Shown here in pieces: positions 7,502-11,073 of a stretch of 15,503 bases of DNA (position 1 is its first letter; every line of letters begins with the position of its first letter). The notes beneath the pieces are model-generated. The model saw only the letters and a list, made by a program, of their open reading frames with translations, had not been told where the DNA came from and did not search any database. The translations under genes were made by a program, and so were the position numbers. Source of the stretch: [Haemophilus] felis (lineage in GTDB: Bacteria > Pseudomonadota > Gammaproteobacteria > Enterobacterales > Pasteurellaceae); NCBI GenBank assembly GCA_002015125.1, contig MUYB01000037.1, forward strand, positions 1 to 15,503, written 5' to 3'.

Positions 7502-8214
7502 ACGCCCTCCGTCAGTTCGGCGAGCAATTGCTCTTGTAATTGCCACAAGGCTTGTTGCCCCAGCTGGCGAGGTGGTAACCCCACAGGTTTAATTTCTTGA
7601 GAAAGGCGAGCTGGCTGATTTTTCAGCACATAAATAGCATCGCTTAATCGAATGGCTTCTTGCGGATCATGAGTAATCAACAACACGGTTTTATTTTGCA
7701 ACAATTCACAGGCCAATGCTTGCAACTGAATGCGCGTGATGGCATCCAACGCAGAAAACGGTTCGTCCATGAGCACTAAATTTGCCTCTTGCATGAGGGT
7801 GCGTGCTAGCGCCACCCGTTGCCGCTGTCCGCCTGAAAGCTGATAGCAAGGCTTATGCCAATGATCCGCCATATTCACCGCACTTAATAACTGCTTGGCT
7901 TTTTGCGCAGTGGCGGCGCTTTTTTTGCCTTGTAAGTGCTGGCTAAGTTGCACGTTATCCAACACCGACAACCAAGGATACAGCGCATCTTGCTGCGCCA
8001 TATAACTGAGCTGGGTGTTTGGCGCAAATTGAATATCGCCACTAACACCACGGGTTTCTAACCCAGCAATAACACGTAACAACGTAGATTTTCCCACCCC
8101 AGAACTCCCCAAAATGCTGGTCCATTTGCCTTGCGGTAAAGCAAAGTTGAGATGTTCGAACAGCAATTTCTGATCGAATTGTACACTTAGCTGACGTAGC
8201 TCAACGGCATTCAT
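7498..8214 (-). CDS. thiZ: ABC transporter ATP-binding protein ThiZ
   Basis: This is the cytoplasmic ATPase that powers ThiXYZ uptake. The 238 residues contain Walker A GSSGVGKST at 36-44, Q-loop MAQQDALYPWLS at 72-83, signature LSGGQRQRVALARTL at 126-140, Walker B LVLMDEPFSALD at 146-157 and the switch histidine in LLITHDP at 178-184. All nucleotide-binding motifs are intact. The layout is that of the nitrate/sulfonate/taurine-type importer ATPases. It is the first structural gene after the TPP riboswitch. The start was taken as ATG at 8214. No good ribosome binding site precedes it; an in-frame TTG at 8229 is possible. A 23-codon leader ORF ends eight bases before the ATG, which suggests coupled initiation. 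Confidence 0.93.
   Translation of the reverse strand: MNAVELRQLSVQFDQKLLFEHLNFALPQGKWTSILGSSGVGKSTLLRVIAGLETRGVSGDIQFAPNTQLSYMAQQDALYPWLSVLDNVQLSQHLQGKKSAATAQKAKQLLSAVNMADHWHKPCYQLSGGQRQRVALARTLMQEANLVLMDEPFSALDAITRIQLQALACELLQNKTVLLITHDPQEAIRLSDAIYVLKNQPARLSQEIKPVGLPPRQLGQQALWQLQEQLLAELTEGV
7877..7885 (-). repeat. Hin-type DNA uptake signal core
   Basis: Exact ACCGCACTT on the plus strand, inside thiZ. It is the second copy within 450 bases. Confidence 0.85.
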
Positions 8215-8222
8215 CGGCAAGG

Positions 8223-8294
8223 TTACCAACTCAAGGAATAAAAAGTAGAGGCGGTGGAAAAAGAAAAGATAGGTAATGGATAAGGTTTGTGCAT
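8223..8294 (-). CDS. Putative 23-residue leader peptide between riboswitch and thiZ
   Basis: An ATG (8292-8294) opens 23 codons ending in TAA (8223-8225). The peptide begins MHKPYPLPIF and ends FYSLSW. Its ribosome binding site AGGA (8303-8306) lies eight bases before the ATG and is part of the conserved 3' end of the TPP aptamer. The stop falls eight bases before the thiZ ATG. The peptide has no recognisable domain. It is rich in Ser, Pro and aromatic residues and shows no run of one amino acid typical of attenuator peptides. Its likely role is as a translated spacer passing ribosomes to thiZ, not as a functional protein. Translation is inferred, and the ORF could be chance. Confidence 0.45.
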   Translation of the reverse strand: MHKPYPLPIFSFSTASTFYSLSW

Positions 8295-8296
8295 AA

Positions 8297-8397
8297 TTAG
8301 TTTCCTACGTCAGTATTAACTGTATCAGGTTCACGGGTATCATCTCAGCCTTATTTCAGCGCGACATATTCACACCGCCACAAGGCACCCCGACTAA
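8297..8397 (-). promoter_or_regulatory. TPP (thiamin pyrophosphate) riboswitch, THI element
   Basis: Read on the minus strand, the conserved aptamer blocks are all present: GTCGGGGTGCC, then GGCTGAGA (8343-8350), ATACCCGTGAACCTGAT (about 8324-8340) and CGTAGGAAA (8301-8309). The closing stem P1 is TTAGT (8393-8397) with ACTAA (8297-8301). The arm between the first and second blocks is the usual variable P3. It stands 5' of the thiamin operon, so bound TPP should lower expression. No terminator hairpin with a U run follows it before thiZ, which points to control of translation initiation. AGGA inside the 3' conserved block would be masked in the bound state. Confidence 0.97.
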
Positions 8398-8407
8398 AAT
8401 TGAGCAT

Positions 8408-8446
8408 GAGCATAACTGATTTTTTTATAAAAAGAAAGGCACCACC
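8408..8446 (-). promoter_or_regulatory. Weak candidate promoter for the thiamin operon
   Basis: On the minus strand, upstream of the aptamer, TATAAA lies 17 bases after TTTATG, and TATGCT (nearer the aptamer) is a second possible -10. Neither has a good -35 box. The stretch between the glycosyltransferase stop (8460) and the aptamer (8397) is only about 60 A/T-rich bases, so a promoter must lie here unless transcription reads in from rmuC and the glycosyltransferase gene. Confidence 0.3.
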
Positions 8447-8459
8447 CATAAAAAATTAT

Positions 8460-9182
8460 CTATAAAAATGCTCGTTTCAAATGGGCAAAATAGGAATTGG
8501 GGTTGTGTTTTTTTGTGTAGGTTAATTTGTGGATACTGGTTTGATTTAGAATATGTTGATAATCTTGCAGATTAAATTTCCGCTTAATTACCTTGTGCAA
8601 CAAATGTGGCAGGGTATCATCTAATAATAGATCTATTTTATAGTCATATTCCTTACATAATACGTCAAACATAATTTGGAAAAAGAAATAGTGCGGTATG
8701 TGATTTTGTGTTTTCCAAAAATGTAACAGCATATTTAAACAAATATGAATAATGGGATTATTTTTCTTGCCCACAATAAAACTATTTAAACAGTTAATGC
8801 GGTGTTTCTTATTCCAATTAAAATAACCATCAAAATTTCCCCATAAATGTTTATTTGGAGAATGTTGATCTCGTTGAAACATAAAAAAATCTAATTCTGT
8901 GATTTTTTCAGGAAGTGGTGCAGTTAGTAAAATGGTTGCATCCATCCAGATTCCACCATACACATCAAGTAGAGCAAGTCTTAATAAATCTGTAAAAAAC
9001 GCATATTTAAATTCTGGATTTTTGCGTTTTTCAAACACAAATTCAGGTAGGTCAATATAATCACGGACGTTTTCATCATTTAAGCGAATAATTTGATAAT
9101 CTTGCGCATATTTATCCACAGAATTAAAACAAATTTGAACAACTTCAGGTGGTTCTACCTCCCCCCCCCCCAGAACTGCCAT
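8460..9182 (-). CDS. C-terminal part of a capsular-polysaccharide-type glycosyltransferase, out of frame
   Basis: This holds the catalytic part of a glycosyltransferase of the Caps_synth type (GT32-like, DXD-dependent), expected to transfer a sugar from a nucleotide donor in the cytoplasm during surface-glycan assembly. It shows PPEVVQICFNSVDKYAQDY, YQIIRL, the hallmark YGGIWMDAT with the metal-binding aspartate, and LTAPLPEKITELDFFMF. The frame extends through the G11 run to an ATG at 9182, but that is unlikely to be its own start because no ribosome binding site precedes it. The true start is 9436, in another frame across the tract. Adding one G (12) or removing two (9) would join the halves into about 325 or 324 residues. 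Base composition is markedly AT-rich compared with the thiamin genes, suggesting acquisition. Acceptor and donor sugars cannot be told. Confidence 0.85.
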   Translation of the reverse strand: MAVLGGGEVEPPEVVQICFNSVDKYAQDYQIIRLNDENVRDYIDLPEFVFEKRKNPEFKYAFFTDLLRLALLDVYGGIWMDATILLTAPLPEKITELDFFMFQRDQHSPNKHLWGNFDGYFNWNKKHRINCLNSFIVGKKNNPIIHICLNMLLHFWKTQNHIPHYFFFQIMFDVLCKEYDYKIDLLLDDTLPHLLHKVIKRKFNLQDYQHILNQTSIHKLTYTKKHNPNSYFAHLKRAFL

Positions 9183-9436
9183 ATAACCCTTTGATTTTCA
9201 AGTTGTTTTTTAGGCCTTAAAATAAAATCATCTAATTCCTTAGCAAAATAACTTTCTAACATTGTGCGCCAAGCCTGAGCAATATTTTGTTGTTTTCTCA
9301 AATTAAATTTTTGCTCAACAGGAGAGCGAATGAATTTTGGTAATAAACCACGATAGAAAAAACGATATGGTTTTTGAAAATTTAATTTCTTGAGAAATTT
9401 ATCTGCGGGGGTGTCAATATCAAATAATTGCTTCAT
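9155..9436 (-). CDS. N-terminal part of the same glycosyltransferase, truncated at the G tract (phase OFF)
   Basis: This is the expressed 5' part of the gene. An ATG at 9436 with AGGA nine bases upstream opens a basic N-terminal region (MKQLFDIDTPADKFLKKLNF, then FRFFYRGLLPKFIRSPVEQ-like sequence) and runs to VIWQFWGGGR before a TAG at 9155. IWQFWG is the usual entry motif of this glycosyltransferase family, where the sugar-nucleotide-binding fold begins. The 93-residue product therefore lacks the whole catalytic core and should be inactive. The gene starts 32 bases after the rmuC stop on the same strand and is probably co-transcribed with it. Confidence 0.8.
   Translation of the reverse strand: MKQLFDIDTPADKFLKKLNFQKPYRFFYRGLLPKFIRSPVEQKFNLRKQQNIAQAWRTMLESYFAKELDDFILRPKKQLENQRVIWQFWGGGR
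9161..9171. repeat. Homopolymer of 11 C (G11 on the coding strand), phase-variation tract
   Basis: Eleven consecutive C lie exactly where the glycosyltransferase frame breaks. On the coding strand the tract follows TTCT and precedes AGGTAG. Runs of this length slip during replication and act as ON/OFF switches of surface-glycan genes in Pasteurellaceae. Counts of 9 or 12 restore the frame; 10 and 11 do not. The tract length in the consensus may also be affected by sequencing error. Confidence 0.9.
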
Positions 9437-9468
9437 TGTTGTTTTCCTGTGATATTTAAATTAAAAAG

Positions 9469-11073
9469 TTATTCTGTGATTCTCACCACTTCCAACCGTT
9501 CTACTTCCACATCATTATGCAACGGTTCTAGTTGCGGTAAATTTTTATTGGCTTTGGCGGAGAGGTCTTTGAAGCGTTCTACTTTGCCCACTAAACCTTG
9601 TTGTCCTACGAGGGCGGTGACGGCGTTGTTGTAATGTGTGGTGGCGCTAGCGAGGGTGTTTCCCACCTTGCCTAAGCGTTCCGCAAGGACGCAGACTTGG
9701 TTGTAAATTTCCCCTGCTCGTGCGCTGATTTCTCTGGCTTCCACGTTGCCTCGTTCAATTCGCCACAGGTTTGCCACAGTGCGTAAAATAGGCATTAAGG
9801 TGGTGTGAGAGACTAAAATTACATTTTTCTCATAACCATAATTAAACAGGCTCGGATCGGTTTTTAATGCTTCGATATAGGCAGGTTCTACGGCAATGAA
9901 CATCAACACGAAATTAGGGCTACGCATGCCAATGAGATTGCTGTAATCCTTGCGAGAGAGATCGTCAATGTGGTGTTTTAAGGCTTTTATGTGTTCCGCA
10001 AGTTTGCTTTGCACCATTAAATCATCCTCAGCATTGACCGCACTTTCATAGGCAACTAGCGACATTTTGCTGTCGATAATAAGGTGTTTGTTATCGGGCA
10101 AGTTCAGCACAAAATCGGGGTAGTTATGTTTGCCGTCGCTGTCTTTAAAATGGGCTTGTGCCTCATAATGTTCGCCTTTTATCAAGCCCGCCAATTGCAA
10201 CGCACGCTCCAATTGCATTTCGCCCCAATTGCCTAAGATTTTCTTTTCCCCTTTTAAAGCGGAAGTCAGGTTGTCTGCTTGTTGCGACATATTTAAACCG
10301 ATTTCCAGCACTTTTTTAATCTCCGCTTCTAATCCAGCGTTACCTTTAAGGGATTCAGAATGAATTTCATTCACTCGTTTTTGAAAACCTTCAATTTGCT
10401 CGCGAAATGGTTTGAGCAGGCTATCCAGTGCGGTTTGATTACTTTGACTAAAGCTACGGCTTTTTTCTTCTAAAATACGGTTCGCCAGATTTTGAAATTC
10501 CGTGCTGAGTTGTTGCTTACTTTGTTCGATATGTTGCTGTTGTTCGGCAAAGTGTTTTTCTTTCTCTGTTAAAGTGGTTTGTAGTTCTGTTAATTCTTGG
10601 GAGAGGCAAGTTAATCTTTCTTGTAATTGATGGTTTTCTTGTTCTTTGCGTGTAACATTGGCTTGGCTATGCACCAGTTGTTTTTCTAAGCTTTCTGCTT
10701 GTGCAGAGGCGATACCAAAGCGTTCTTTTAGCGCCGTTATGTTATCTGTAATATTTTTGTGGCGTTCTTGCTCTTCATCTAATTCTTTTTGCAAATAATT
10801 TAATTTTTCATCACGTTCTAACAAGCGTAGCTGTAAATTTTCCGCAGTGGTTTGATATTTCACAACACTTTGTTCCAATTGATTTTTTGCTTGTTGAACA
10901 GCTTCAAATTTATTGACTAGTTGATTGAAATCATCAATGGTTTTATTCAAATCTTGTTGTAATTCTTGGCTATCTCGCTTGTAACGAGCATTAAGAAAAA
11001 TAAAAATAATTAACACCATTGCTAATGAAGCAAGGGCGATCCAATAAGTGGTGGAAATGAATTCAAGCTGCAT
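9469..11073 (-). CDS. rmuC: DNA recombination protein RmuC
   Basis: RmuC is a membrane-anchored protein that limits inversions and recombination at short inverted repeats in E. coli; its C-terminal region is related to restriction-like nucleases. The 534 residues have one N-terminal membrane span (about 10-28) and a long coiled coil rich in Gln, Glu and Lys (about 32-205). The RmuC domain follows (about 215-510), with ILGNWGEMQLERAL at 279-292 and a PD-(D/E)xK-like pair, YPDFVL (D320) and IIDSK (D334, K336). Further on are KDYSNLIGMRSPNFVLMFIAVEPAY and RGNVEAREISARAGEIY. E. coli RmuC is about 475 aa; the excess lies mainly in the coiled coil. GGAG precedes the ATG. It diverges from maf across a 93-base promoter region. 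Confidence 0.95.
   Translation of the reverse strand: MQLEFISTTYWIALASLAMVLIIFIFLNARYKRDSQELQQDLNKTIDDFNQLVNKFEAVQQAKNQLEQSVVKYQTTAENLQLRLLERDEKLNYLQKELDEEQERHKNITDNITALKERFGIASAQAESLEKQLVHSQANVTRKEQENHQLQERLTCLSQELTELQTTLTEKEKHFAEQQQHIEQSKQQLSTEFQNLANRILEEKSRSFSQSNQTALDSLLKPFREQIEGFQKRVNEIHSESLKGNAGLEAEIKKVLEIGLNMSQQADNLTSALKGEKKILGNWGEMQLERALQLAGLIKGEHYEAQAHFKDSDGKHNYPDFVLNLPDNKHLIIDSKMSLVAYESAVNAEDDLMVQSKLAEHIKALKHHIDDLSRKDYSNLIGMRSPNFVLMFIAVEPAYIEALKTDPSLFNYGYEKNVILVSHTTLMPILRTVANLWRIERGNVEAREISARAGEIYNQVCVLAERLGKVGNTLASATTHYNNAVTALVGQQGLVGKVERFKDLSAKANKNLPQLEPLHNDVEVERLEVVRITE
10037..10045 (-). repeat. Hin-type DNA uptake signal core
   Basis: Exact ACCGCACTT on the plus strand, inside rmuC. 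A one-mismatch copy, CAGTGCGGT, lies at 10426-10434 in the opposite orientation. Confidence 0.85.

What the first reader, a model, noticed from the sequence alone, without database searches (positions are those of the whole stretch)
8460..9436. Phase-variable glycosyltransferase in the OFF register
A run of 11 G on the coding strand sits exactly at the IWQFWG entry motif of a Caps_synth-type glycosyltransferase. The upstream frame stops at TAG two codons after the tract. The downstream frame resumes a perfect family match (PPEVVQICFNSVDKY, YGGIWMDAT). With 12 G the protein is continuous at about 325 residues, with 9 G about 324. The break falls only at the homopolymer and the rest of the gene is intact, which argues for a slippage switch of a surface glycan rather than gene decay.
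Basis: partly seen in the sequence, partly recalled or inferred. Interest (0 to 1): 0.78.

Follow-up and report, generated by a model that had tools for sequence, protein, structure and literature searches.

The report
Glycosyltransferase gene with slippery G run
In a bacterium closely related to one found in cats, a sugar-transfer gene is split by a run of eleven Gs that probably lengthens and shortens to switch the gene on and off; this is a familiar kind of switch, seen here in a new gene.

Summary
Window 9161-9171 is 11 G on the coding (minus) strand, the only G or C run of 6 or more in the window. It splits one PF05704 (Caps_synth) glycosyltransferase into a 93-codon and a 240-codon frame. 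The organism is [Haemophilus] felis or a sister species (76 of 77 residues to an [H.] felis record).

Best reading: a homopolymer contingency locus caught out of frame. A near-identical protein (229 of 230 residues after the tract) stands in the other shifted register. A 76%-identical one also reads in a shifted register there, yet keeps 54 of 55 family-invariant residues. The tract falls in a length-variable loop just after the first core strand. G runs of 11 or more occur in 55 of 140 Pasteurellaceae genomes, some in typical switch genes.

The nearest six genomes lack the gene. Slippage itself was not observed. New member of a known kind.

The parts
9155..9436 (-). 5' part of the glycosyltransferase frame, 93 codons, stops at TAG just after the tract
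9161..9171 (-). 11-G homopolymer at the IWQFWG motif; by alignment to the modelled relative P0003, in the loop after the first core strand
8460..9182 (-). 3' part of the glycosyltransferase frame, 240 codons from an internal ATG in the shifted register; carries YGGIWMDA
9469..11073 (-). rmuC, same strand, 32 bp upstream of the glycosyltransferase
8285..8402 (-). TPP riboswitch (RF00059), downstream of the glycosyltransferase and ahead of the thiamine genes
   Evidence: 68 bits against gathering score 54.3

Best explanation
A laterally acquired, stand-alone GT-A-type glycosyltransferase gene (PF05704), probably acting on a surface glycan such as lipooligosaccharide, sits between rmuC and the thiamine operon. 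A run of G in the codons of its WG loop is prone to slipped-strand mispairing. One of three registers reads through; the other two stop just after the first core strand and give an inactive stub. The window shows one of the two shut registers. Shown: the tract, the break, conserved residues after the tract, and protein records that read in both shifted registers. Inferred: reversible slippage, surface-glycan role, horizontal arrival, tract lengths in the other records.
For: Tract and frames. P0001 is 229 of 230 residues identical after the tract but reads in the third register; P0002 (76%) starts in the same shifted register as the window. After the tract the window keeps 55 of 55 and P0002 54 of 55 residues invariant among the 13 tract-free relatives in alignment A1. 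The glycosyltransferase pieces differ from near-identical records at 2 of 307 residues, RmuC from its nearest record at 15 of 534 (Fisher p 0.04; not known to be the same strains, so weak). In the model of the intact relative P0003 (pLDDT 92.9) strand 85-89 is IIWQF and residues 90-96 are loop. G runs of 11 or more in 55 of 140 Pasteurellaceae genomes; 5 of 10 tract-touching frames scanned are GT4, YadA, ESPR or HsdS. Of 10 neighbours of relatives scanned, 4 are GT25, 3 GT4/group-1 glycosyltransferases, 2 HtrL_YibB, 1 without a family. Mononucleotide tracts as likely switches of H. influenzae glycosyltransferases: PMC2651432 section 3.18 (passages).
Against: No in-frame copy with a G tract was found. 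P0121 ([H.] felis) breaks before the tract, apparently by one more A in a run of six. No G tract at this motif in 140 Pasteurellaceae and 348 Moraxellaceae genomes; the one hit in 83 Neisseriaceae genomes, L108, is a G8 run not in this gene. In 59 matched stretches of relatives (48 loci, some being the same place twice) the longest G run is 5. The six nearest genomes lack the gene and have no G run of 11. The tract lengths of P0001 and P0002 are inferred from residues, not read from DNA, and the DNA upstream of them was not seen.
Confidence: 0.68

Rival explanations
1. Pseudogene in decay: an acquired glycosyltransferase that lost its use; the G run is just the first hypermutable place to break.
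For: All three close records are broken: window and P0001 at the tract, P0121 upstream of it. A relative in G014 is frameshifted inside the gene with no G tract at the motif. The gene is low in G+C (0.31 against 0.43 for the window) and absent from the six nearest genomes, as for a dispensable import.
Against: Residues after the tract are as conserved as in tract-free relatives, 55 of 55 in the window and 54 of 55 in P0002 at 76% identity; no other stop or shift in either half of the window's copy.
Confidence: 0.25
2. Sequencing or assembly error in a long homopolymer; the gene is really in frame.
For: Runs of 11 are error-prone on some platforms (general knowledge); the platform of this window is unknown.
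Against: P0001 and P0002 also read out of frame at the same place. An error of a base or so would still leave a long tract.
Confidence: 0.04
3. The shut register is not silent: RNA polymerase slippage on the G run, or starting again at the internal ATG (9182), gives some full-length or C-terminal protein.
For: The internal ATG lies upstream of the stop (frames overlap by 28 bases) and has AAAGGG four bases before it; P0002 shows the same start.
Against: The ATG is a by-product of the ATATGG that encodes the conserved IW; a product from it lacks the first core strand. No expression data.
Confidence: 0.03

Closest known systems
Mononucleotide-tract candidate phase-variable genes of Haemophilus influenzae (PMC2651432, section 3.18, passages read)
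   Same: Homopolymers in 5' coding regions or linked to frameshifts in glycosyltransferases, type I RM and YadA-domain genes
   Different: Different species and site, and the gene family there was not compared; here the tract lies about 88 codons in
G11-split GT4 gene in the Pasteurellaceae genome G041 (L093)
   Same: Glycosyltransferase beside a gene that looks like a ribosomal protein gene (rpmE, recalled), G11 exactly on the glycine codons of its GGGMERY motif, out of frame
   Different: GT4 family, tract after 12 codons; switching not shown there either
lgt-type poly-G glycosyltransferases of Neisseria (recalled, no call)
   Same: Poly-G slippage in lipooligosaccharide glycosyltransferases
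   Different: Other families (recalled); switching shown experimentally there (recalled)

Membership tests
PF05704 Caps_synth glycosyltransferase | profile match over the domain | tested here: met
   Downstream piece 58-278 of 278, E 7e-64; upstream piece 7-57, E 2.8e-4 but below the curated cut-off on its own
PF05704 Caps_synth glycosyltransferase | YGGIW-D (DXD-like) motif and other residues invariant in relatives | tested here: met
   55 of 55 columns after the tract that are invariant in 13 tract-free relatives are kept
PF05704 Caps_synth glycosyltransferase | one continuous reading frame | tested here: not met
   Two overlapping frames in this copy; so it is a split copy of the family here
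Simple-sequence contingency (phase-variable) locus | long tract far above chance inside the coding region, break exactly there | tested here: met
Simple-sequence contingency (phase-variable) locus | tract region differs in length among relatives with different registers | tested here: inconclusive
   Window and P0001 differ by four bases by inference from residues; no in-frame copy seen
Simple-sequence contingency (phase-variable) locus | reversible high-rate switching in culture | not testable with these tools
   No reads or isolates
Simple-sequence contingency (phase-variable) locus | rest of gene free of lesions in related strains | tested here: not met
   P0121 stops before the tract; one cluster of 3 member sequences, may be error or local decay

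The most novel reading that the evidence does not exclude
A switch in a species that groups with Pasteurella, where a 2017 review states no evidence of phase-variable expression (of P. multocida), made by turning the glycine codons of a core GT-A loop into a slippery tract. The same layout in an unrelated GT4 motif (GGGMERY, L093) suggests that acquired stand-alone glycosyltransferases are repeatedly made switchable by expanding their own glycine motifs. The shut register might also lower read-through into the thiamine operon by polarity.
Probability: 0.2. Interest if true: 0.5.

Novelty: new member of a known kind. Interest (0 to 1): 0.32.

Why it matters
It would add a switchable surface-glycan gene to a lineage placed with Pasteurella, where lipopolysaccharide change in P. 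multocida is described as non-phase-variable (PMC5577588, passages), and it shows how a loop that tolerates extra glycines could carry a switch deep inside an enzyme.

Tried and rejected
Plasmid collection: one 55-base match to a Glaesserella parasuis plasmid, in the riboswitch region, nothing useful. Viral contigs: no match to the tract pattern, no relative of the gene. NCBIfam: no family for either half. Motif-plus-G8 pattern in three families: only a chance G8 outside the gene; three relatives' own genomes: none. G9 runs in the six nearest genomes: 15 distinct tracts in 4 of 6, none longer than G10, several inside frames open on both sides, so G9 alone is no mark of a switch. The own genome is not held. 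PDB by sequence: three weak matches, best a fungal alpha-1,6-mannosyltransferase at E 0.0068, the other two a Legionella protein. PDB by fold: 24 matches at E 0.001 or better, YeGT, glycogenin, Och1 and two toxin or effector glycosyltransferases of the same fold class; query TM 0.32-0.44 in the 50 rows shown, so only the fold class is taken from it. PMC6211672 (passages): homopolymers of five or more bases in H. parasuis RM genes; no mention of glycosyltransferases.

Rows dropped: of 55 genomes with G runs of 11 or more, 30 loci were fetched, one per genome. All 30 were tabulated by frame; 12 were taken further, 11 of them gave an open frame of 120 codons or more, and 10 of these went to Pfam (L102 left out). 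Some tracts lie at contig ends (e.g. L079, L083, L104) and may be assembly artefacts. Of 536 homologous proteins (120 listed), 15 went with the window into A1 and 30 into A3, chosen by me.

Full report
Observation. The 11-G run is at 9161-9171 on the coding strand. It is the only G or C run of six or more in the window, and a Markov-1 model of the window without it expects 0.0016 runs of that length. The upstream frame (93 codons, 9436-9155) ends in IWQFWGGGR and TAG; the downstream frame (240 codons, 9182-8460) overlaps it by 28 bases. Pfam places them side by side in PF05704: positions 7-57 and 58-278 of 278, E 2.8e-4 (below cut-off alone) and 7e-64.

Organism. No whole genome is held. The upstream piece has a single hit, P0121 of [Haemophilus] felis, 79 aa, whose first 77 residues agree at 76 (candidates there are limited to 51-163 aa by the tool's length rule). 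RmuC is 97% identical to an unnamed record and 79-84% to records named Pasteurella or Bisgaard taxon 45/46. PMC13076348 (passages and section 39) clusters H. [quoted passage not shown] it was isolated from a cat with lung disease and from healthy cats. So the window is [H.] felis or a sister species.

Place. The gene lies 32 bp after rmuC on the same strand and before a TPP riboswitch at 8285-8402. No terminator-like site was found on the coding strand in 8200-9700 and the promoter scan was at chance level, 5 against 5.7 expected. In the six nearest genomes (G107-G112, rmuC 77-81% identical), rmuC and the riboswitch region are neighbours: about 145-180 bp apart in five, about 750 bp of other sequence in the sixth. 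Three of them have contigs of the same length as records named P. dagmatis (cluster), P. multocida OH4807 and P. oralis (inference). Neither half of the gene matches at that site, and none of these six is among the 20 of 140 Pasteurellaceae genomes with a match. With 31% G+C against 43% for the window, arrival by lateral transfer is likely.

Relatives. P0001 (245 aa, no name) is 229 of 230 residues identical after the tract but reads LYGSSGGGVEPP, the third register. P0002 (76%) reads MAVLGGVTPP, the window's shifted register. P0003 (72%) is intact with no G tract, IWQFWDGKAAPEVV. Of columns invariant in the 13 tract-free relatives of A1, the window keeps 55 of 55 after the tract and P0002 54 of 55, the exception being I to V; mismatches before the tract are the wrong frame. 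In 59 matched stretches of relatives read at this motif (48 loci, some the same place twice) the longest G run is 5. The pattern TGGCARTWYTG8 is absent from 140 Pasteurellaceae and 348 Moraxellaceae genomes; the one hit in 83 Neisseriaceae genomes is not in this gene.

Against a pure switch. P0121 ends LRPKKTT where the window has LRPKKQLEN. This is what one more A in the A6 run would give, and it stops the protein before the G tract. Either that strain carries a lesion outside the tract, or the record has an error. In genome G014 the relative is broken into two frames inside the gene, with no G tract at the motif. No in-frame, tract-bearing copy was seen. If registers were random, three shut copies of three would occur about 30% of the time, so this alone decides nothing.

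Mechanism. In the AlphaFold model of P0003 (30 sequences, pLDDT 92.9, pTM 0.90) the motif is strand 85-89, followed by a loop 90-96 and helix 97-109. The alignments show loops of different lengths here, so extra glycines should be tolerated while shifted registers cut the protein after the first core strand. The fold class is GT-A (glycogenin, YeGT, Och1 among the hits; GT-A label recalled). Of ten neighbours of relatives scanned, four are GT25 (LPS biosynthesis in Pfam's words), three GT4/group-1 glycosyltransferases, two HtrL_YibB and one without a family. This suggests a role on lipooligosaccharide or another surface glycan; donor and acceptor are unknown.

Known kind. G runs of 11 or more occur in 55 of 140 Pasteurellaceae genomes but in none of the six nearest. 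Thirty loci, one per genome, were fetched; many tracts lie outside long frames and some at contig ends. Of ten frames scanned, one is GT4, one YadA, one ESPR, two HsdS, one GH43/aldo-keto reductase, one MFS, one BRO/P22AR, two without a family. The GT4 case, L093, has G11 on its GGGMERY motif, out of frame, 55% identical to the GT4 next to the PF05704 gene of Rodentibacter heidelbergensis. PMC2651432 (passages) proposes mononucleotide-tract switching for glycosyltransferases, type I RM and YadA genes of H. influenzae. [quoted passage not shown] multocida. In my paper searches no listed title or abstract start names this gene; four papers were opened, for passages and one section only, so absence from print is not claimed.

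Verdict. A real, tract-centred break in a conserved gene, most likely a contingency switch seen in a shut register (0.68), with decay the main rival (0.25). New member of a known kind.

Noticed in passing
L093:1465-2513: GT4 gene in an unnamed Pasteurellaceae genome (G041), next to a gene that looks like rpmE (recalled), split by G11 exactly at GGGMERY; a likely switch gene.
   Followed up: partly
L101:908-2233 and L103:902-2020: Type I specificity (Methylase_S) genes with G20 and G13 tracts in frame in the middle of the gene, in two unnamed Pasteurellaceae genomes.
   Followed up: partly
L097:1474-3009 and L099:3-1598: YadA-type and ESPR genes with G12 and G11 tracts near the start.
   Followed up: partly
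L045/L053 (G014): Relative of this glycosyltransferase broken into two frames around residue 90 of the query with no G tract at the motif.
   Followed up: partly
window 8403-8459: No terminator-like site on the coding strand between the glycosyltransferase and the TPP riboswitch; possible read-through from rmuC into the thiamine operon.
   Followed up: no
L028:3022-3772: The same rmuC-thiamine gap holds about 750 bp of other sequence in genome G111, so the gap may be a variable insertion spot.
   Followed up: no
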